This document shows, one piece after another, positions 10,540 to 36,823 of a stretch of 43,779 bases of DNA. Every line of letters begins with the position of its first letter. Position 1 is the stretch's first letter. Source of the stretch: Prochloron sp. SulCav_FS08_3_32_3330. Its GTDB lineage: Bacteria; Cyanobacteriota; Cyanobacteriia; Cyanobacteriales; DYNF01. The DNA lies in contig DYNF01000016.1 in NCBI GenBank assembly GCA_020721205.1, positions 14,255-58,033 of the forward strand, written 5' to 3'. Under the pieces are notes generated by a model that was not told where the DNA came from, did no database searches, and saw nothing but the letters and a program-made list of their open reading frames with translations. The translations under genes and the position numbers were made by a program.

Positions 10540-13377
10540 TTACTCTATCATCTTAATTTCTTTTTCTGTTAATTCATATAATTTATATACTAATAAATCA
10601 ATTTCTCTTTCTAATTTACTGATATCAGCATCAGGATCATTTTTCTTAATTTTAATAATTTCATTAACTAATTTAATAAAAGGTTTTTCTTGTTTTTCGG
10701 TAATTTGTTTAACAGGAATTTGCTCAAAAAATACTTTACTTAATTCTCTCCCATTTTTACCTAATCTGGGAAAATTATCTTTAAAACAAAACAGCCATAA
10801 TTTAGAATTGAAGAAAGCTGTTAAATATTCAAGAAATTTACCTGTTAAAATATAACATTTTTGATTAGTATATAATTTATTTGTATCAAAAATAAAAGGA
10901 AAAAATTGAGTCATATTAGCATAAATAATTTTAGGTTTTTCAAATTCTTCAAGATAAGCACAATTTCTTAAATTATAAGGTGTTTTTCCCTGATCTGTGC
11001 GTTTTTTTAATTGAGGTAAAAATTGATCTAAATACTCTTTGATAGCAGGATAATCTTCAGCTTTTAAATAAGGAATATTTTGATGATTTTTTGTATAACC
11101 ATTATGGAAATTAATTAACCATAAATCTTGATAATTAGGATAATATTTATTAATATCTCTACCCCTTAAAAGAGGTTTAATTATTGTTTCAGATTTTGCA
11201 TCTTTAGTAATTAATTCCTGTCGTTTTTTACCATCAATAATAAAAGCTTCATTAAAACCTGTTAAAATCCCTCGATAAATATTAATATTCCAATCTTTTA
11301 AACTCACTCCTTGATCTTCAATTTTTTGCTTAATTTGTAACACTTGATCCTTTTCAAAACTCCAACTATTTTCGCTTAAATTATTTTGTTGAAAATCCTG
11401 TTTAATCTTTAACAAACTTTCAGTAAAAGCATTAGAATTGAAGTTATTTTTATCAAAATTAGCATATAATAAATGATTATTAGTTGATTTTTGCTTAACA
11501 AAACCTAAAATAGAAGCGTCTACCGTTGCTTCATCAAATATTGCTAAACCATTAAAATCAATAAAATGAGTAAGTTGAGTATTTTCTAATAAAAATAATC
11601 TCATTTGTTTACCATAATTAGCACGGGTAAACTTATTAGAAATAATAAACTGAAAAATCCCATTTTTATTAAGTAAATTATAACCTAATTCCACAAAATA
11701 AGTTAATAAATCAGCCATAGAATTATAAATAGAAAAATGTTGTTTTAAAATAGATTTAATAGCGGAAAATTCCTCTTGACGAAGATAAGGAGGATTACCA
11801 ATAATAATATCAAAACCGATAAAATCTCCTTGATTATTTAACACTTGAGGAAACTCAAAACGCCATTCAAAAGCATTTTGATAAAGTTTACTCCTTTCTA
11901 TGTCTTCAATCTCTATTTTTAAATCAGAATTTAAAGCAAAACGACTAATTAATGAATTACCATGTTTAATATTAATATCAATATTCGGTAAAGTTTCTAG
12001 TTGTCTATCAATCCCCGACTTTTCTAAAAAGTCGGGGATTTGATTATCATGATAATAACTATTTTTCAATAATTCAATCCACAATCTTAAACGACAAATT
12101 TTGACAGAATTACTATTAATATCCACTCCAAATAAACAATTTTCAATAATAGTTTTTTTCTCATGAAATAAAGTTTTTTGAACTCGTTGAGATTCTTTAT
12201 TATTCGGGTTATATTCAAAAAAATCACCGTCATTATTAATAATAATTAACTCATCATTTTCTACTGTTATTTCATAATCCCTTAACAATTTTCCCTCGGA
12301 ATCCATTAAGATTTTTAACTCACTTTTGATCGCAATAATTTCATTTAAAGCTGATACTAAAAAATGACCTGATCCTACCGCCGGATCACAAATTTTCAAA
12401 CTATTAATAATCTTATTAGCTTCTATTTTATCCTCAATTTTATTATGTAAATCATTAAAAGATTGACATTTCCAGCCCTTAAGATCATTAAACTTTTGTA
12501 TTATTGATCTTCTAATAGTTTCCCGACACATATACATAGTAATAAAGCTGGGAGTGAAAAATGAGCCATCTTGATAACCGTTAATTTTCTCAAAAATTAA
12601 ACCTAAAACAGAAGCATTAATTAAACTTTTATTTTCCTTTTTAACTCCTTCTAAACTTTGCGTCTTTGCGCCTTTGCGAGAAATAATAGCCCCTTCTGGA
12701 GACTCTCCAAAGTCATAACTATCTAAAAAATTAAACAAATATTCTAAACTATTTAACTTACCTTCTAACTTTTTTCCTTGACTATCTTTTAAAACAGAAT
12801 ACTTAAAAATTGGTAAATTTTCTGAAATTAAATTACTAATAACAATCGTTTGTTTTTCAATTTCTGTTACTTCAAAAAGTGAACTATTTAAGGAAGGAAT
12901 ATTACCCCATTTTTTTAAAATTGTAGCAGATCTTTCTTCAATTTTCCAAGCTAAAACTTGAAAAAATAAACAGTTTAAATCATCATAATTTTTAATTATA
13001 GTTAAATTCAGAAAACTATAAGTTAAATTCCCTTGATGATAACGAATTAATTGTGCTTCTAATAATTTTAAAAATAAAATCCGATTAATCCATGTTATAA
13101 TTAATTGTAAACCAAGATTAAATAATTGATCTTCTTCATTTTTTCCATATTTTTCTAACACTTCTAAATTTTCTAACTGATCAAGTTTATCTAATGTTTT
13201 AATTTGATTAAGGGCATTTTCTAACAATGATCCTTGATTTCTCTTAGCTATTTTTTCTCTTTGAATTAACTTTTTATTACCTTCTTTAACTTCCGTTAAA
13301 CCTAAAAGATATAATAATTCATAATAAAAGGCTTTATTTAAACTATTACTATCATTAGTTTTATTTTTAAAATTCAT
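10540..13377 (-). CDS. Eco57I/TaqI-like DNA methyltransferase, apparently 5'-truncated
   Basis: Adenine-specific DNA methyltransferase of the large type IIG-like class. From the ATG at 13377 it is 945 residues; the frame stays open to a TTG at 13479 inside cbiB, and residue numbers here count from that TTG. SAM motif I is ICDPAVGSGHFLVSALNEI (about 363-381), a further motif is GVDINSNSVKICRLRLW, and catalytic motif IV is IIGNPPYLRQEE (NPPY about 562-565). A TaqI-like target-recognition domain follows (PLLRGRDINKY). Full-length relatives known to me are about 1200 residues, with an N-terminal nuclease-like domain that is missing here. Two dispersed repeats sit in frame, at residues about 267-275 and 481-493. 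It may be a methylase-only remnant; activity is uncertain. Confidence 0.75.
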   Translation of the reverse strand: MNFKNKTNDSNSLNKAFYYELLYLLGLTEVKEGNKKLIQREKIAKRNQGSLLENALNQIKTLDKLDQLENLEVLEKYGKNEEDQLFNLGLQLIITWINRILFLKLLEAQLIRYHQGNLTYSFLNLTIIKNYDDLNCLFFQVLAWKIEERSATILKKWGNIPSLNSSLFEVTEIEKQTIVISNLISENLPIFKYSVLKDSQGKKLEGKLNSLEYLFNFLDSYDFGESPEGAIISRKGAKTQSLEGVKKENKSLINASVLGLIFEKINGYQDGSFFTPSFITMYMCRETIRRSIIQKFNDLKGWKCQSFNDLHNKIEDKIEANKIINSLKICDPAVGSGHFLVSALNEIIAIKSELKILMDSEGKLLRDYEITVENDELIIINNDGDFFEYNPNNKESQRVQKTLFHEKKTIIENCLFGVDINSNSVKICRLRLWIELLKNSYYHDNQIPDFLEKSGIDRQLETLPNIDINIKHGNSLISRFALNSDLKIEIEDIERSKLYQNAFEWRFEFPQVLNNQGDFIGFDIIIGNPPYLRQEEFSAIKSILKQHFSIYNSMADLLTYFVELGYNLLNKNGIFQFIISNKFTRANYGKQMRLFLLENTQLTHFIDFNGLAIFDEATVDASILGFVKQKSTNNHLLYANFDKNNFNSNAFTESLLKIKQDFQQNNLSENSWSFEKDQVLQIKQKIEDQGVSLKDWNINIYRGILTGFNEAFIIDGKKRQELITKDAKSETIIKPLLRGRDINKYYPNYQDLWLINFHNGYTKNHQNIPYLKAEDYPAIKEYLDQFLPQLKKRTDQGKTPYNLRNCAYLEEFEKPKIIYANMTQFFPFIFDTNKLYTNQKCYILTGKFLEYLTAFFNSKLWLFCFKDNFPRLGKNGRELSKVFFEQIPVKQITEKQEKPFIKLVNEIIKIKKNDPDADISKLEREIDLLVYKLYELTEKEIKMIE
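12010..12040. repeat. AGTCGGGGATT hairpin inside the methyltransferase gene
   Basis: A perfect 14-bp inverted repeat (AATCCCCGACTTTT / AAAAGTCGGGGATT, 3-nt loop) encodes the in-frame peptide IPDFLEKSGIDRQ on the minus strand, bounded by CAA codons on both sides (NQ...RQ). It is the same hairpin used as a terminator at 280, 24764 and 30520. Relatives as I recall them run straight from NQ to LETLPN, so this is an insertion that preserved the frame. Confidence 0.7.
12656..12681. repeat. RKGAKTQ-encoding dispersed repeat
   Basis: CTTTGCGTCTTTGCGCCTTT followed by GCGAGA reads SRKGAKTQS on the minus strand. This CTTTGCG repeat is a familiar dispersed element in bacterial genomes. It is more GC-rich than its surroundings and lies in a linker of the methyltransferase between the helical domain and the motif before the SAM site, where family members vary in length. 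Confidence 0.6.
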
Positions 13378-30587: not shown

Positions 30588-30974
30588 TTAATCCCAAAGT
30601 TTTTCAATAGAATAATGATTAAAAGCTTGATCTTTACTAACTAAAACTAGATTATTATTGATTGCCTGAGCAATTAAAATGCGATCAAAAGGATCCCGAT
30701 GATATAAAGGTAAATTGCGAATAATAAGAGTATCTTCAAAAGAAATTGGTAATAAAGTAATATCTGAATTTTCTATAGCTTTACCAATTTCTGAATATTC
30801 TCTTTTGAGAGAAATTTTACCAATATTTAATTTAATCGCAATTTCCCAAAGACTAACAATACTAACATAAACATTATCAGCTTGTTCAATCGTTTCTTTA
30901 AGACTATTAGGTAAATTTTCGTCATCTTCAGTCAGCCAAATAAAAGCGTGAGTATCAAGCAATAAATTTTTCAT
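30588..30974 (-). CDS. VapC-type PIN toxin
   Basis: 128 residues. PIN landmarks are NLLLDTHAFIWLTEDDENLP (first Asp), SIVSLWEIAIKLNIGKI (Glu), YHRDPFDRILIAQAI (the R-D-P-F-D-R signature) and LVLVSKDQAFNHY (last Asp). This is the DTHAFIW/DPFDR subgroup, typically paired with DUF2281 antitoxins as here. Start and antitoxin stop overlap by one base (TAATG). Complete and probably active. Confidence 0.9.
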   Translation of the reverse strand: MKNLLLDTHAFIWLTEDDENLPNSLKETIEQADNVYVSIVSLWEIAIKLNIGKISLKREYSEIGKAIENSDITLLPISFEDTLIIRNLPLYHRDPFDRILIAQAINNNLVLVSKDQAFNHYSIEKLWD

Positions 30975-31216
30975 TACATATACCCCGCCAAATCTTCTAA
31001 AGGTGCATCAAAATCATCAGGTAAAGGTAAATTAAAAGTACCTTTTAAAATACCGATACGACGTTTGTTTTCTTGTTTTTCAACAGTTTGATCACCATTT
31101 TTATGATCAGAAAAATTGATTTTATCAATAAACTGTAATACCTCCGTTAATTGAGGAGCAGAAAGTTTATTAATTTCTTGTAATACTTCTTGACGAATAT
31201 CCGTTACAGTAGTCAT
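30974..31216 (-). CDS. DUF2281-type VapB antitoxin
   Basis: 80 residues. The N-terminal helix VTDIRQEVLQEINKLSAPQL is followed by TEVLQFIDKI. The conserved end GILKGTFNLPLPDDFDAPLE followed by DLAGYM is the hallmark of this cyanobacterial antitoxin family and contacts the PIN toxin. It is coupled to the toxin. The 178 bp upstream are AT-rich with a small GCATCG...CGATGC hairpin near 31336 and no gene. Confidence 0.85.
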   Translation of the reverse strand: MTTVTDIRQEVLQEINKLSAPQLTEVLQFIDKINFSDHKNGDQTVEKQENKRRIGILKGTFNLPLPDDFDAPLEDLAGYM

Positions 31217-31394
31217 AATTTACAACCCCTAATTTTTTGAAAATTAATTATTACTAATAATAGTATAACAAAAAAATTATAAATGTTAATAAAAATCAAC
31301 TTAAATTTAGTCGCTTTAGCAGACTTTTGCTATTAGCATCGTCAATTTATTGCGATGCGGTTTATTTCTCTTGCTTAAAAGAATAGAAATTAGA

Positions 31395-31652
31395 TTAATT
31401 ATGATTTATTTTCATTGATAAATTATTAGCTAGTTTAATCAAACCATCAATAGATAAATCTTCATCTAACATAATCCAATGAATCCCGTACCCTGAAGGA
31501 GAAATCTTATATAAATTTCTTTCAATTTCTGTAGCATTTACTAACTTATTAGATACTTGTTTTAAAGGTAAATAATAAGTTTTTTGATCAACAGTTATAA
31601 TCATTTCTTGATTAGAAAAATTGATTGATTCAATATTATGTATTTTATCCAT
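31395..31652 (-). CDS. DUF2442-like protein
   Basis: 85 residues from the ATG at 31652 (MDKIHNIESINF), preceded by GGAGG at the right distance. Features are IITVDQKTYYLPLKQVSNKL, NATEIERNLYKISPSGYGIH and the ending WIMLDEDLSIDGLIK, typical of DUF2442, a small family often found beside DUF4160 or other TA-like genes. Upstream a C-terminal scrap of another frame (LLQNLDEIAETWNQFFGG) ends at this gene and begins exactly at the MITE. Confidence 0.7.
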   Translation of the reverse strand: MDKIHNIESINFSNQEMIITVDQKTYYLPLKQVSNKLVNATEIERNLYKISPSGYGIHWIMLDEDLSIDGLIKLANNLSMKINHN

Positions 31653-31719
31653 AATTAACCTCCAAAAAATTGATTCCATGTTTCAGCAATTTCGTCTAAA
31701 TTCTGTAAAAGTATTTTTT
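31653..31719 (-). pseudogene. C-terminal scrap of an unknown gene
   Basis: The minus-strand frame NQKILLQNLDEIAETWNQFF plus GG, ending in a stop next to the DUF2442 start. It starts at the end of the MITE; the codon before it is a TAG within the element. The rest of the gene is not found on the far side, so insertion probably came with loss of sequence. Family unknown. Confidence 0.4.
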
Positions 31720-31869
31720 GGTTCTACTGGATATGTTATGCTAAATTAGCACGAAAGTCTGACAAAATGGAAAATTAAGTTATTGATAGATCATAAAAGC
31801 TCAAATTTTTAGATTGTAAGGCTTTTAGATGTTGACAATTATTTTTAGCATAACAAGTCCGGTAGAACC
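31720..31869. mobile_element. 150-bp MITE with 24-bp terminal inverted repeats
   Basis: The left end GGTTCTACTGGATATGTTAT plus GCTA (31720-31743) and the right end (31846-31869) are inverted repeats with about 21 of 24 matches. The right end read inward begins GGTTCTACCGGACTTGTTAT. There is no coding capacity, so it must be moved by a transposase elsewhere in the genome. I do not name the IS family. No convincing target duplication is visible. Confidence 0.75.
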
Positions 31870-31894
31870 TTAATTGAAAAGAAAACCACTATTC

Positions 31895-32119
31895 TTAATC
31901 CTTTTCTAATTGACTAATCAAAAGATTAGGAAAATTAATTGTTTCTAAACTGTTTAAATTTAACTTTGTTGAAGGATGATCAATATCAATACCAACAATA
32001 TTACCATTCTCATCAAAATCAACCACTAAATTCTCGCTTATTTCTTGAGAATCAACAGCCGATTTTTTTATTAATTCAATATATAAAGAATCGGTTTCTG
32101 GATAATAATGTAATTGCAT
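31895..32119 (-). CDS. DUF2283 protein
   Basis: 74 residues. MQLHYYPETDSLYIELIKKS, then VVDFDENGNIVGIDIDHPST, is the whole of the DUF2283 fold, a small beta-rich family found in TA-like pairs (often with DUF4258). No partner remains, since the MITE lies immediately downstream. A hairpin terminator separates it from the nuclease operon upstream. Confidence 0.8.
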   Translation of the reverse strand: MQLHYYPETDSLYIELIKKSAVDSQEISENLVVDFDENGNIVGIDIDHPSTKLNLNSLETINFPNLLISQLEKD

Positions 32120-32132
32120 AATTTAATAAATA

Positions 32133-32167
32133 AAAAAGTGTATTATCTCAAGAATAATACACTTTTT
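32133..32167. terminator. Strong hairpin after the ParA/nuclease operon
   Basis: A perfect 14-bp stem, AAAAAGTGTATTAT (32133-32146) and ATAATACACTTTTT (32154-32167), with a 7-nt loop and A/T runs on both sides. It ends the three-gene minus-strand operon that begins at 33830. Confidence 0.85.
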
Positions 32168-32182
32168 AACATTAATTAAATT

Positions 32183-32653
32183 TTACTTAAATAATTCTAA
32201 TGCTTCCTCATTAATATTACGCAAAGGTGGTAAGTCTTGAATTGCATTTTTAAAATTAGTTGTTTCTTCAAAAATATCCCTTAATGTTAAGAGATGAATT
32301 GTAAATTGATTTGTTAGTTTTTTACTATTTAGTGCAAGTTTTAAACGATCATAAAAACCATCTGTATAGCCTATTCCTGTTAAGAAAAAACCAAGATCAG
32401 CCTCATGTATAACTAAATTTCCCACAAAATCAGCAACATAAGAAGCATCTAATATATTTTGAGATAATTTAGACTGAAAATAAATCATTTTATTGTTGAT
32501 ATTTGCATAACCATCTATTCCGCCATCACCTCCAGCAACGCCCGGAGTTAAGCCTAAATGATAAGCAAAACGACGACCTAATTCTTGTTTTTGAGAAGTA
32601 TCACAGGCTAATATTCCTTTTACTATGCCTTGAAAAACTCTAGCTCTGTTCAT
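32183..32653 (-). CDS. Mrr-like PD-(D/E)XK restriction endonuclease
   Basis: 156 residues from the ATG at 32653; a GTG lies one codon earlier. The active-site pattern is clear: GVAGGDGGIDGYANI (Asp43/Asp47) and, 13 residues on, MIYFQSKLSQN (Q60-x-K62), the Mrr-type D-(Q)xK signature. The motif is followed by YVADFVGNLVIHEADLGFFL and TGIGYTDGF, matching the Mrr_cat fold. There is no separate DNA-recognition winged helix, so partners probably give specificity. It overlaps the upstream gene by 14 bp and is thus translationally coupled. Likely cuts DNA; substrate unknown. Confidence 0.75.
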   Translation of the reverse strand: MNRARVFQGIVKGILACDTSQKQELGRRFAYHLGLTPGVAGGDGGIDGYANINNKMIYFQSKLSQNILDASYVADFVGNLVIHEADLGFFLTGIGYTDGFYDRLKLALNSKKLTNQFTIHLLTLRDIFEETTNFKNAIQDLPPLRNINEEALELFK

Positions 32654-33161
32654 CACTATTTACCTCATTATTATTAATATTTAACGGCTGAAATAAATAG
32701 TTATGACGATACATTAACTCAGTACCAATAATAATACTTTCAGCTATTTGATCAAGCATATTTATCTTTTCCAAACTATCTTTTGTTAACCAAGTTAAAT
32801 TAAATTTTTTTCTAATAGTTTTAGAATTATTGATTTTATCATTTAGATCTAAATGTAAATTTTGCACAATTATTTTAATAGTTAAATTATTATGAACAGT
32901 TAAATAAAACTCAAGATAACTTATAGCTGAATTAATTAAAATACCAACAGCCAAACCAAAAACTTTATGCAAATCTTTTAGTTTTTTGATTGTATCTTCA
33001 GGAATAAATATGTCAGTTTCATTATTATCTTGATCTTGTCTTTCCATTTCTTCCACCGCTTTTTTGATTGCTTGATTTACTTTATTTCTAGTAGGTGTAA
33101 GTGAGTTAGGAGAAGATAATTTTGTATCTTCAGATAGTAATTGAGTAGTTTTATTTTCCAT
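32640..33161 (-). CDS. Probable ribbon-helix-helix DNA-binding protein
   Basis: 173 residues, no family recognised by name. After a polar first ~45 residues, TDIFIPEDTIKKLKDLHKVF then GLAVGILINSAISYLEFYLT fits the strand-helix-turn-helix layout of RHH (CopG/MetJ/ParG-like) proteins. KFNLTWLTKDSLEKINMLDQ then IAESIIIGTELMYRHNY may be a second such unit. Placed between a ParA-like ATPase and a nuclease, it is the natural candidate for a centromere-type or operator-binding partner. That role is inferred; no search could be run. Confidence 0.45.
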   Translation of the reverse strand: MENKTTQLLSEDTKLSSPNSLTPTRNKVNQAIKKAVEEMERQDQDNNETDIFIPEDTIKKLKDLHKVFGLAVGILINSAISYLEFYLTVHNNLTIKIIVQNLHLDLNDKINNSKTIRKKFNLTWLTKDSLEKINMLDQIAESIIIGTELMYRHNYLFQPLNINNNEVNSDEQS

Positions 33162-33173
33162 AGTTTAGTACCT

Positions 33174-33830
33174 CTATATGTCTAGTAATTGTTCAAAATA
33201 ATCTTGGGTATCTTCATAACCATTATATTCCCAAATATATTGCCTATCTTCATAGACAGCATCTTCTATAATATAATCTAAATCTCTCATCGCATTAGTT
33301 ACTGATAAATCATTAGGTTTATAGGGAAAAGATTTAATTTTTTCCCTAATCAAATTTTCCTCTATTCCTAATGGAACAATCATAACTTTTATTGGTTTAA
33401 CGACTCTACCTTGCATTCGTTCAACAACATCTAATGTTGCCGCTAAATTTTTCTTAGAACCTTTATTTTTATGAGATTTATTAATAGGAATAAAAATTAG
33501 ATCAGGTTCACTTCCAATAATTACTTGAACAATATTTGGAATTGGAGTATCCATATCTAAAACTATATAATCATATTGCTCTATATTAACTTTCTTTTTC
33601 TTTTTAATAGATATTCTCTCAGGATTAGTTATTACATGAACATCATTATTTTTATTTATTGTTTCATTATCAGAAGGTTCTTCACCTACAAAAAACATCC
33701 ATGAGTCAGCTTGATCATCACAATCAATTAATAGCACATCTCCACGTCTAGCTAATATTCCTGCAAGATGAACTGCTAGAGTAGTTTTTCCTACACCACC
33801 ACTGTTATGAGTGCAAAGAATTACTTTCAA
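33174..33830 (-). CDS. ParA/MinD-like ATPase
   Basis: 218 residues. The Walker A is HNSGGVGKTTLAVHLAGILA; the usual deviant KGGVGKT is altered to SGGVGKT, so the signature lysine is missing while the phosphate-binding Lys15 is present. Then VLLIDCDDQADSWMFF (switch I/Walker A'), YDYIVLDMDTPIPNIV (Walker B) and PDLIFIPINKSHKN. Length fits the short partition ParA type without an N-terminal HTH. The start is TTG (LKVILC) with GGAG about 11 bp upstream. First gene of a three-gene operon and divergent from alaS. Confidence 0.85.
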   Translation of the reverse strand: MKVILCTHNSGGVGKTTLAVHLAGILARRGDVLLIDCDDQADSWMFFVGEEPSDNETINKNNDVHVITNPERISIKKKKKVNIEQYDYIVLDMDTPIPNIVQVIIGSEPDLIFIPINKSHKNKGSKKNLAATLDVVERMQGRVVKPIKVMIVPLGIEENLIREKIKSFPYKPNDLSVTNAMRDLDYIIEDAVYEDRQYIWEYNGYEDTQDYFEQLLDI

Positions 33831-33937
33831 GATTAAATTTCTCCATTGATGAAAATATCACTATTAAGTATATCATATTTATCATATTAAGCACTTAAAA
33901 TGTAACAATAGTAAAAGTAAATCTATCATTAAAAACT

Positions 33938-36823
33938 ATGACAAAACAACCTCCAAAATTAACTGGAAACGAAATTAGAGATAAATTTCTCAACTATTTC
34001 CAAAGCCAACAACATCCTATTTTACCTAGTGCTTCCCTTGTGCCGGAAGATCCCACTGTGTTATTAACGATCGCCGGAATGTTGCCTTTTAAACCCATTT
34101 TCCTTGGGCAACAAAAGCCCGATCAGCCCCGTGCTACTACTTCTCAAAAGTGCATCCGTACTAATGATATTGAAAATGTGGGGCGTACTGCTAGGCATCA
34201 TACTTTTTTTGAGATGCTCGGAAACTTCAGTTTTGGCGATTATTTCAAGGGAAAAGCGATCGCAATGGCTTGGGAGCTTTCTACACAAGTCTATCAACTT
34301 GATCCTAACAATATTATTGTTAGTGTATTCAGAGAAGATGATGAGGCTTTCAATATCTGGCGTGATCAAATTGGTATTCCTGAGCATCGTATTCAGCGTA
34401 TGGGAGAGGATGATAATTTCTGGAAATCGGGTAATACTGGACCTTGTGGACCTTGTTCAGAATTATATTATGATTTTAAACCAGAATTAGGTGATGCTCA
34501 CATTGATTTAGAAGATGATAGCCGTTTTATTGAGTTTTATAATCTGGTATTTATGCAATATAATCGGGATGCGGAAGGTAATTTAACACCTTTGCAAAAC
34601 CAGAATATTGATACGGGTTTGGGCTTGGAAAGAATGGCTCAAATTTTGCAACAAGTACCTAATAATTATGAAACAGATTTAATTTTTCCGATTATAGAAA
34701 CAGCCTCTAAACTAGCAGGAATTGATTACAAAAATAGTGATGAGAAAACTAAAGTTTCTCTCAAAGTTATTGGTGATCATGTAAGAGCAGTTGTTCATTT
34801 AATCGCTGATGGTGTTACTGCTTCAAATACTGACAGAGGCTATGTTTTACGGCGTTTAATTCGTCGTGTGGTGCGTCATGGGCGTTTAATTGGCATTGAA
34901 GGTAATTTTATTAATCAAGTTGCGGAAACTGCTATAAAATTATCAGAACAAGTTTACCCTAATACCAGAGAAAGAGAAAGTTTAATTACACAGGAATTAT
35001 TAAGAGAAGAAGATAATTTCTTAAAAACTTTAGAAAGAGGTGAAACAATCCTATCAAGAATTACTTTAGGACTTGAAAGTTTGAAAAATCAACTTGAACA
35101 AGTAATTATTCCAAGTATAGATTTAACGTCAATGCAAAACTTATCAAAAATTGATTTTTCACAGATCAATAAACAAATCAAAGAGTCTTTAGAAAATGTT
35201 GATTTAACGTCAATGCAAAACTTCCCAAAAGTTGATTTTTCACAGATCAATAAACAAATCAAAGAGTCTTTAGAAAATGTTGATTTAACGTCAATGCAAA
35301 ATGCAATTAAAAAAAGTTTAGAAAACTTAACTGTAATATCAGGAAGTGATGCTTTTACTCTTTATGATACCTATGGTTTTCCTTTAGAATTAACTCAAGA
35401 AATAGCAGAAGAAAGCGGTTTAAAAGTTGATGTAGAAGGTTTTACTCAAGAGATGAAAATTCAACAGGAACGCTCAAAAGCCGCTCATGAAACGATTGAT
35501 TTAACTGTACAAGGTAGCATAGATAAATTAGCAGAACATATCCATCCCACTAAGTTTTTTGGCTATGATAATCTACAATATCAAGCAATAGTTGAAGCCG
35601 TTTTAATTGAAGGTAAAACTGTTAATCTTGCTAACGCTGGTGATACCATTCAATTAATTTTAAATGAAACTCCTTTTTATGCTGAATCTGGCGGTCAAAT
35701 TGGAGATAAAGGGTATTTAACCGGAGATAATTTACTAATTAATATCACAGATGTTCAGAAAGAATCGGGCTTTTTTGTGCATTATGGTACGGTGGAGCGA
35801 GGCACAATTAAAGTTAAGGATACTGTTAATGCTATTATAGATCGCTCTTGTCGTCGTCGCTCCCAAGCTAATCATACAGCTACTCATTTATTGCAATCGG
35901 CATTAAAGAAAATCGTTGATCCTTCTATCTCCCAAGCCGGATCCCTCGTGGATTTTGATCGCCTCCGTTTTGATTTTAATTGTCCTCGTAGCTTAAAATC
36001 AGAGGAATTAGAACAAATTGAGAGTCTAATTAATCAGTGGATTGCTGATGCTCATGATACTGATATTAATACAATGGTGATCGCTGAAGCTAAAGCTAAA
36101 GGTGCGATCGCTATGTTTGGGGAAAAATATGGTTCAGAGGTGCGTGTTGTGGATATTCCGGGGGTATCTATGGAATTATGTGGGGGAACTCATGTTAAGA
36201 ATACCGCCGAAATTGGGCTATTTAAAATAATATCTGAAACGGGTATTTCTTCAGGGGTAAGACGGATTGAAGCGGTGGCTGGAGCGTCGGTTTTAGCATA
36301 CTTAAATATACGAGATCAAGTAGTCAAAGAATTGGGTAGTAAATTTAAAGTTCAACCTGAAGAAATCTGCGATCGGGTTAACAATTTACAATCGGAATTA
36401 AAGGCAACTCAAAAAGAATTAGAAGCAGTAAAAAATGAACTAGCTTTAGTAAAATCTGAAGGCTTAATTAACCAAGCAGAAACCATTGGTGAGTTTAAAC
36501 TTTTGGTTGCTAACTTAGGCGAAATTGACGCTAAAGCATTGCAAACAGCAGGGGAAAGATTGCAACAAAAATTAGGAGAATCTGCCGTAATTTTAGCCTC
36601 AATTCCCGATAGCGACAAAGTTAGTTTAGTAGCCGCTTTTAGCCCTAAAGTTATCAAAGAAAAAGGTTTACAAGCGGGTAAATTTATCGGTGAAATTGCC
36701 AAAATTTGTGGCGGTGGTGGCGGTGGTCGTCCTAATTTAGCTCAAGCAGGAGGACGAGATCCTAGTAAGTTAAAAGAGGCTTTAGAAATTGCAAAAGAAA
36801 GGTTAATCAAGGTTTTAAGTTAA
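33938..36823 (+). CDS. alaS: Alanyl-tRNA synthetase with repeat insertion
   Basis: 961 residues, about 80 longer than typical AlaRS. The catalytic core has [29 protein letters not shown] (seen as [16 protein letters not shown]) and NTGLGLERM-like [11 protein letters not shown]. The editing domain has zinc ligands [16 protein letters not shown] and [16 protein letters not shown]. The C-Ala domain ends with [20 protein letters not shown]. Between [18 protein letters not shown] and [17 protein letters not shown] is an extra stretch (about residues 380-460) carrying 27-residue repeats. All catalytic motifs are intact, so the insertion must be tolerated. It is an essential single gene. Confidence 0.95.
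35120..35302 (+). repeat. 81-bp tandem repeats inside alaS
   Basis: 35120-35200 and 35201-35281 are near-identical 81-bp units (27 codons, [18 protein letters not shown] then ESLENV), followed by the first 21 bp of a third unit at 35282-35302. The differences are only a few bases, so the duplication is recent. The peptide is predicted helical. The DNA just before and after (SLKNQLEQ..., [10 protein letters not shown]) looks like older decayed units. Confidence 0.9.

What the first reader, a model, noticed from the sequence alone, without database searches (positions are those of the whole stretch)
32133..33830. Three-gene operon: ParA-like ATPase, probable RHH protein, Mrr-like nuclease
The sequence shows a TTG-started ParA-type ATPase with altered Walker A (SGGVGKT), a 173-residue protein with RHH-like layout, and a nuclease with G-x-D-G-G-I-D-G...Q-x-K, overlapping or 12 bp apart and closed by a 14-bp hairpin. 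ParA plus an RHH partner is a known partition layout, but coupling to an Mrr-type nuclease is not a system I can name. It could position a nuclease on the nucleoid, act as a plasmid-competition device, or be a new defence module.
Basis: partly seen in the sequence, partly recalled or inferred. Interest (0 to 1): 0.78.

Follow-up and report, generated by a model that had tools for sequence, protein, structure and literature searches.

The report
ParA–tandem-RHH–nuclease cassette of cyanobacteria
Three small genes that are always found side by side in some cyanobacteria encode a DNA-positioning ATPase, a two-in-one DNA-binding protein and a DNA-cutting enzyme; they form a real but undescribed unit that probably aims a nuclease at particular DNA, although its purpose is untested.

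Summary
The three genes form an almost obligate cassette in Cyanobacteriales. A profile of the nuclease finds 49 loci in 37 of 391 genomes, nearly all with ParA and the middle gene beside it. The reverse searches agree: 43 of 44 ParA places and all 48 middle-gene places lie in such cassettes, and the one exception is a decayed cassette. The middle protein is predicted to be a single-chain tandem ribbon-helix-helix (RHH) protein; its best fold match is F-plasmid TraY. The nuclease has a restriction-endonuclease fold with a conserved D…QxK site. The ParA lacks the signature lysine in two thirds of copies, as in β-McdA type 1. The genes co-evolve and are mostly under purifying selection. Copies are chromosomal and scattered among housekeeping genes, with no upstream repeat array and no defence-island setting; one copy sits on a Synechococcus plasmid next to an Abi gene. 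Classical partition is therefore unlikely. Best reading: the RHH protein chooses DNA, ParA provides an ATP-dependent DNA-bound platform, and the nuclease cuts (compare VirC1/VirC2/VirD2), most likely against foreign DNA. The co-working is strongly supported; the biological role is inference. No published description was found.

The parts
33174..33830 (-). ParA/MinD-type ATPase, 218 aa, TTG start; Walker A SGGVGKT at 33783-33803 (Ser at the signature-lysine position)
   Evidence: AAA_31 3e-13, CbiA 3e-11; conserved TTG start in many relatives; alignment A6
32640..33161 (-). Middle protein, 173 aa, single-chain tandem RHH DNA-binding protein
   Evidence: AlphaFold (two beta-alpha-alpha units, pLDDT about 90 or more); Foldseek top hits are F TraY; phrog Arc-like repressor, weak, E 0.0035
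32895..33020 (-). RHH unit 1 (residues 48-89: strand 48-54, helices 55-68 and 72-89)
32697..32819 (-). RHH unit 2 (residues 115-155: strand 115-121, helices 124-132 and 139-155)
32183..32656 (-). Mrr-like PD-(D/E)xK nuclease, 157 aa; active-site D48 (32513-32515), Q61-x-K63 (K63 at 32468-32470)
   Evidence: Mrr_cat 9e-6; AlphaFold; Foldseek EcoT38I, AspBHI, MspJI; motif conserved
32133..32167 (-). 15-bp hairpin, A+T-rich, flanked by A and T runs; probable terminator
   Evidence: z -4.8; not met by the GC-rich terminator scan
33881..33908 (-). Possible sigma-70-type promoter TTGTTA-16-TATGAT, about 50 bp before the TTG start
   Evidence: no more such sites than chance in the region, so weak

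Best explanation
The three genes make one DNA-targeting machine. The tandem-RHH protein binds particular DNA sites and is the specificity part (fold predicted; DNA binding inferred). The ParA-type ATPase, in its ATP form, binds DNA non-specifically next to or together with the RHH protein and gathers or positions it on DNA (inferred from the ParA/RHH pairs ParF-ParG and VirC1-VirC2). The Mrr-like nuclease is recruited by that complex and cuts the DNA (fold and active site shown; activity and recruitment inferred). The most likely use is removal or exclusion of foreign DNA such as plasmids or phages carrying the recognised site. The operon is probably autoregulated by its RHH protein.
For: Near-obligate linkage: 49 loci by nuclease, 43 of 44 ParA places and 48 of 48 middle-gene places in cassettes; the one exception, G354, is a decayed cassette with broken ParA and broken middle gene. 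Same strand and order at every complete locus, short gaps or overlaps at most of them. Distances of the three proteins correlate (r 0.73-0.76, Mantel p 2e-4). dN/dS mostly well below 1 for all three. The middle protein diverges fastest (mean identity 20%, against 44% nuclease and 38% ParA), as expected of a specificity subunit. Tandem-RHH fold like F TraY, PD-(D/E)xK restriction fold, active-site Lys in 37 of 40. Patchy presence, tree spread across families (18 label changes against a minimum of 6) and frequent decay (16 of 49 incomplete) suit a defence-type gene. The plasmid copy lies beside an Abi gene on a plasmid that has its own separate parA.
Against: No PADLOC system matches beyond a weak generic type IV restriction model (8.4e-5). 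Neighbours are mostly housekeeping genes, not defence genes. ParA is broken or missing at 9 loci where the other two still cover the profile, so ParA may not be essential. Any self/non-self discrimination is unknown. Distribution appears restricted to cyanobacteria. No activity has been measured.
Confidence: 0.42

Rival explanations
1. A toxin-antitoxin-like or selfish maintenance cassette: the nuclease is harmful to its own cell, the tandem-RHH protein is its antidote and repressor, and ParA is an accessory. It persists by addiction.
For: Whenever the nuclease covers the profile the middle gene is present (42 loci by coverage), while ParA is broken or absent in 9 of them (L055, L056, L066, L067, L070, L080, L088, L090, L091). 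ParA 10 lesions against middle gene 0-1, one-sided p about 0.004-0.02 if lesions scaled with length. L055 and L090 are independent ParA deletions that keep middle gene and nuclease. RHH proteins are common antitoxins (established knowledge).
Against: TA systems do not normally carry a ParA; ParA co-evolves with the pair and is under purifying selection where intact. The nuclease is also often broken while the others survive. Small numbers; one middle gene (L090) has a C-terminal frameshift.
Confidence: 0.22
2. A selfish mobile or homing-type element: the nuclease cuts alleles without the cassette and ParA/RHH help target the site; the life cycle is invasion, decay and loss.
For: Scattered single copies between housekeeping genes, up to 4 per genome, empty orthologous sites in sister genomes, many decayed copies, mixing between families in the tree.
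Against: No target-site duplication or terminal repeats at the junctions examined; within a genus the copies sit at the same sites and look vertically inherited; purifying selection on all three genes.
Confidence: 0.13
3. A cargo-positioning or DNA-maintenance system: ParA distributes an RHH-nuclease complex over the polyploid nucleoid for repair or resolution, like McdA positions carboxysomes.
For: The ParA profile matches McdA structures (6non, 6noo). Loss of the signature lysine is shared with beta-McdA type 1 (PMC8262871).
Against: A housekeeping role would predict wide conservation, but only about 10% of genomes have it. ParA is dispensable for retention of the other two genes. One third of copies keep the lysine.
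Confidence: 0.13
4. A true partition (parABS-like) system of an integrated plasmid, with the nuclease as hitch-hiker.
For: Small ParA followed by an RHH protein is the layout of type Ib partition (established knowledge); one copy is on a plasmid.
Against: Chromosomal in nearly all cases; the plasmid has another ParA; no repeat array upstream in 27 loci; ParA plus RHH never seen without the nuclease except as a decayed remnant.
Confidence: 0.06

Closest known systems
VirC1-VirC2 (with relaxase VirD2) of the Agrobacterium Ti plasmid
   Same: ParA-like ATPase plus an RHH DNA-binding protein that act not in partition but with a DNA-cutting enzyme at a cis site (PMC8406263; VirC2 as a single-chain RHH is from memory of Lu et al. 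2009).
   Different: The third protein here is a PD-(D/E)xK nuclease, not a relaxase; no T4SS or relaxase gene is seen nearby; ParA is below the VirC1 cut-offs (18.2 bits against 24). Analogy, not membership.
F-plasmid TraY
   Same: Single-chain tandem RHH fold; best Foldseek match, probability 0.94 (PMC12117103).
   Different: E-value only 0.15, no sequence similarity found, no conjugation context.
ParF-ParG / delta-omega (ParA + RHH partition)
   Same: Small ParA followed by an RHH partner.
   Different: Tandem rather than dimeric RHH, no upstream repeat array, chromosomal, fixed nuclease partner.
beta-McdA type 1 (McdAB)
   Same: ParA-type ATPase without signature lysine; PDB profile match.
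   Different: The partner is an RHH protein, not McdB; no mid-protein extension; the lysine is kept in a third of copies.
Mrr-type (type IV) restriction endonucleases
   Same: Mrr_cat domain with D...QxK, restriction-endonuclease fold.
   Different: Only 157 aa with no modification-recognition domain; specificity would have to come from the partners.
Wadjet / MksBEFG and other anti-plasmid systems
   Same: Chromosomal multi-gene unit pairing a DNA-associated ATPase with a nuclease.
   Different: ParA and RHH instead of an SMC complex; a different nuclease type.

Membership tests
ParA/MinD ATPase superfamily | P-loop fold with curated Pfam score | tested here: met
   AAA_31 50.5 bits against cut-off 27, CbiA 43.8 against 25.4
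ParA/MinD ATPase superfamily | Deviant Walker A with signature lysine (KGGxGK[ST]) | tested here: not met
   Ser in the window; K in 12, S 10, D 7, N 5, G 2 of 36 relatives
Type Ib partition (ParF-ParG) | Small ParA plus RHH partner in one operon | tested here: met
   though the RHH is tandem
Type Ib partition (ParF-ParG) | Centromere repeat array near the operon | tested here: not met
   No array: repeats no longer than in shuffles in 26 of 27 upstream regions; L061 has a short AATTCAA run
Type Ib partition (ParF-ParG) | Serves the replicon that carries it | tested here: not met
   Several copies per chromosome; the plasmid copy coexists with another parA
RHH superfamily | beta-alpha-alpha units forming an RHH pair | tested here: met
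   Two units in one chain, pLDDT about 90 or more; TraY fold match, prediction only
RHH superfamily | Sequence-specific DNA binding | not testable with these tools
   needs DAP-seq or EMSA
Mrr-like PD-(D/E)xK nucleases | Mrr_cat score, fold and D...QxK motif | tested here: met
   26.2 bits against cut-off 21; Foldseek EcoT38I 5e-4; K in 37 of 40, R in 3 close relatives
Type IV restriction enzymes | Separate domain recognising modified DNA in the same protein | tested here: not met
   157 aa with no further domain in Pfam or the model
VirC1-VirC2 | Sequence membership in VirC1 | tested here: not met
   PF07015 18.2 bits against cut-off 24; NF010423 18.8 against 313
VirC1-VirC2 | Association with relaxase/T4SS | tested here: not met
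   No such genes among nearest neighbours; a T4SS-domain gene about 10 kb away on the one plasmid
McdAB | McdB partner / carboxysome locus | tested here: not met
   The partner is predicted RHH; neighbours are varied
Known antiphage systems (PADLOC) | Match to system proteins | tested here: not met
   Only mREase_IV at 8.4e-5 over 58 residues; ParA and middle protein none
Defence genes by context | Enrichment near defence genes | tested here: not met
   119 neighbours of 30 sites: no PADLOC family in more than 2 members; no formal background set
Type II toxin-antitoxin | Antitoxin always retained with an active toxin | tested here: inconclusive
   Middle gene retained with every profile-covering nuclease; small numbers, one frameshift
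Homing / mobile element | Precise insertion, target duplication or terminal repeats | tested here: inconclusive
   Empty sites found, no duplication seen; some empties may be deletions

The most novel reading that the evidence does not exclude
A new class of immune or inter-element conflict system in which a ParA-type ATPase and a single-chain tandem-RHH protein scan or mark DNA and direct a stand-alone PD-(D/E)xK nuclease to it: a ParA-guided nuclease, restricted to cyanobacteria.
Probability: 0.33. Interest if true: 0.82.

Novelty: new variant of a known kind. Interest (0 to 1): 0.62.

Why it matters
ParA ATPases are known to move plasmids, chromosomes and organelles; a fixed, co-evolving partnership with a nuclease would add DNA destruction to that list. 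Because the cassette lies outside defence islands, guilt-by-association screens would miss it. Natural variants (signature lysine present or lost, ParA deleted, nuclease Lys to Arg) give ready-made comparisons to test which steps need ATP switching and cleavage. The parts are small and can be tested in laboratory strains.

Tried and rejected
Rfam scan of the window: no hits. First genome-contig scan with the nuclease found only generic Mrr-domain proteins without the partner genes. No relatives in phages or viral contigs. Outside cyanobacteria: 0 of 301 genomes of the phylum of L010 (titled Chloroflexi) and 0 of 369 of the class of L002 (titled Gammaproteobacteria); these are samples with no positive control in those groups. 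All hits listed from a phylum-wide draw were in the same order. Sequence searches of the PDB with the nuclease and middle-protein profiles gave only chance hits, so fold comparison was used instead. Upstream regions were searched for parS-like arrays without success. Junctions were searched for target-site duplications without success. Literature searches found no description of this trio; the DefensePredictor paper lists PD-(D/E)xK, P-loop NTPase and RHH as its commonest domains but does not mention ParA in its main text. Metagenome contigs could not be searched and no complex could be modelled.

Full report
Observation. ParA and the middle gene are 12 bp apart; the middle gene and the nuclease overlap. 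A 15-bp hairpin at 32133-32167 closes the unit (-13.7 kcal/mol, z -4.8). The TTG start is credible because many relatives keep TTG at the same position.

Families. ParA matches AAA_31 and CbiA above the curated cut-offs; the nuclease matches Mrr_cat above its cut-off; the middle protein matches nothing in Pfam. PADLOC gives only a weak generic type IV restriction match.

Is it a unit? Yes. Sixty relatives gave nuclease relatives in six genomes, all with the same neighbours. A nuclease profile in 391 genomes of the order found 37 positive genomes, up to four copies each. I fetched 49 loci; 33 have all three genes at near full profile coverage and almost all the rest show remnants. Reverse searches: 44 ParA places at E up to 1e-35, of which 43 are in cassettes; the 44th (G354) has a broken ParA followed by a broken middle gene and no nuclease, so it is a decayed cassette. 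All 48 middle-gene places in the positive genomes are in cassettes. Order and strand never change at complete loci and gaps are mostly short.

Co-evolution and selection. In 21 non-redundant trios the pairwise distances of the three proteins correlate at r 0.73-0.76 (Mantel p 2e-4). dN/dS is clearly below 1 for nearly all pairs in all three genes. The exception is a nuclease lineage in one genus whose catalytic Lys has become Arg (QCRL): there the nuclease ratio is 1.1-1.2 in two comparisons while ParA and the middle protein stay near 0.2-0.5. That fits loss of nuclease constraint after loss of the catalytic residue, on few substitutions.

Folds. AlphaFold models the middle protein as two beta-alpha-alpha units in one chain, high confidence in both units. 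The best Foldseek matches are chains of the F-plasmid relaxosome; one of the matched entries is described as lacking TraM, which points to TraY, an RHH protein that holds the whole RHH dimer fold in one polypeptide (PMC12117103). The E-value is weak (0.15) though the probability is 0.94, so I rest on the topology more than on the match. The nuclease model matches EcoT38I, AspBHI and MspJI.

ParA. The signature lysine is Ser in the window and is replaced in 24 of 36 relatives. The P-loop lysine is invariant. Loss of that residue is also a feature of beta-McdA type 1 (PMC8262871), and McdA structures are among the profile's PDB hits.

Where it lives. Copies lie in large chromosomal contigs (4.7-7.2 Mb in complete genomes), next to varied housekeeping genes. 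A scan of 119 neighbours shows no defence enrichment, though no background set was run. The single plasmid copy among 72,556 records is in Synechococcus elongatus UTEX 3055, beside an Abi gene and near an integrase; that plasmid has its own separate parA. The nuclease tree mixes families (18 label changes, minimum 6), so there has been horizontal transfer, or old duplication with loss. Within one genus the copies sit at shared sites and empty sites occur in sister genomes, without target-site duplications. One genus member (G157) seems to keep upstream remnants at an otherwise empty site, so some empties are deletions.

How lesions fall. Among 42 loci whose nuclease covers the profile, ParA is broken or missing in nine; the middle gene is present in all, with one C-terminal frameshift (L090). 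Two deletions removed nearly all of ParA yet kept the other two; in one (L055/L014) the ParA start is fused in frame to the middle gene. If lesions scaled with gene length this bias has p about 0.004-0.02. So the middle protein and nuclease look like the core pair, which leaves a TA-like reading open. Coverage by profile does not exclude early stops; L070 and L071 have one near the nuclease start.

Mechanism. ParA plus an RHH protein acting with a DNA-cutting enzyme has a precedent outside partition: VirC1 and VirC2, which work with the VirD2 relaxase at the T-DNA (PMC8406263). By analogy I propose that the RHH protein picks the DNA, ParA-ATP builds a DNA-bound platform, and the nuclease cuts. 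Shown: linkage, folds (predicted), conserved active sites, selection. Inferred: DNA binding, recruitment, cleavage, role. The lack of a repeat array and the chromosomal multi-copy state speak against partition. The fast divergence of the middle protein fits a specificity role.

Novelty. The parts are known; the fixed trio is not described in the papers I could search, in PADLOC or in NCBIfam, so I call it a new variant of a known kind, and keep open that it is a new class of system.

Noticed in passing
window 35120-35301 (inside alaS, 33938-36823): Alanyl-tRNA synthetase carries an in-frame insertion of roughly 90 residues made largely of an 81-bp tandem repeat (2.2 copies, 97% match), absent from the 876-aa relative in L063.
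   Followed up: partly
window 30588-32119: Directly downstream lie small genes typical of toxin-antitoxin neighbourhoods: DUF2283, DUF2442, and a DUF2281-PIN (VapBC-like) pair.
   Followed up: partly
G000:C143:58999-60613 (L061): The window's own genome holds a second, diverged cassette (nuclease 38% identical), in a different subfamily with a canonical KGGVGKT ParA.
   Followed up: yes
L059, L060, L062, L068 (one genus): Nuclease catalytic QxK has become QxR, with relaxed dN/dS in the nuclease but not in ParA or the middle protein in two comparisons.
   Followed up: partly
window alaS; L063, L066, L069, L094: Cassettes lie next to alaS in two unrelated settings: divergent at its 5' side in the window, after its 3' end in genus g10. 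May be coincidence.
   Followed up: partly
L068 around 10700-10820, and many places in genus g10: A dispersed repeat of about 100 bp occurs dozens of times in each genome of this genus.
   Followed up: no
L080, L084, L086 and L083, L090, L099: In two families the cassette lies by the same gene group (87-aa gene, 140-aa gene) but at different positions; shared ancestry or a hotspot is undecided.
   Followed up: no
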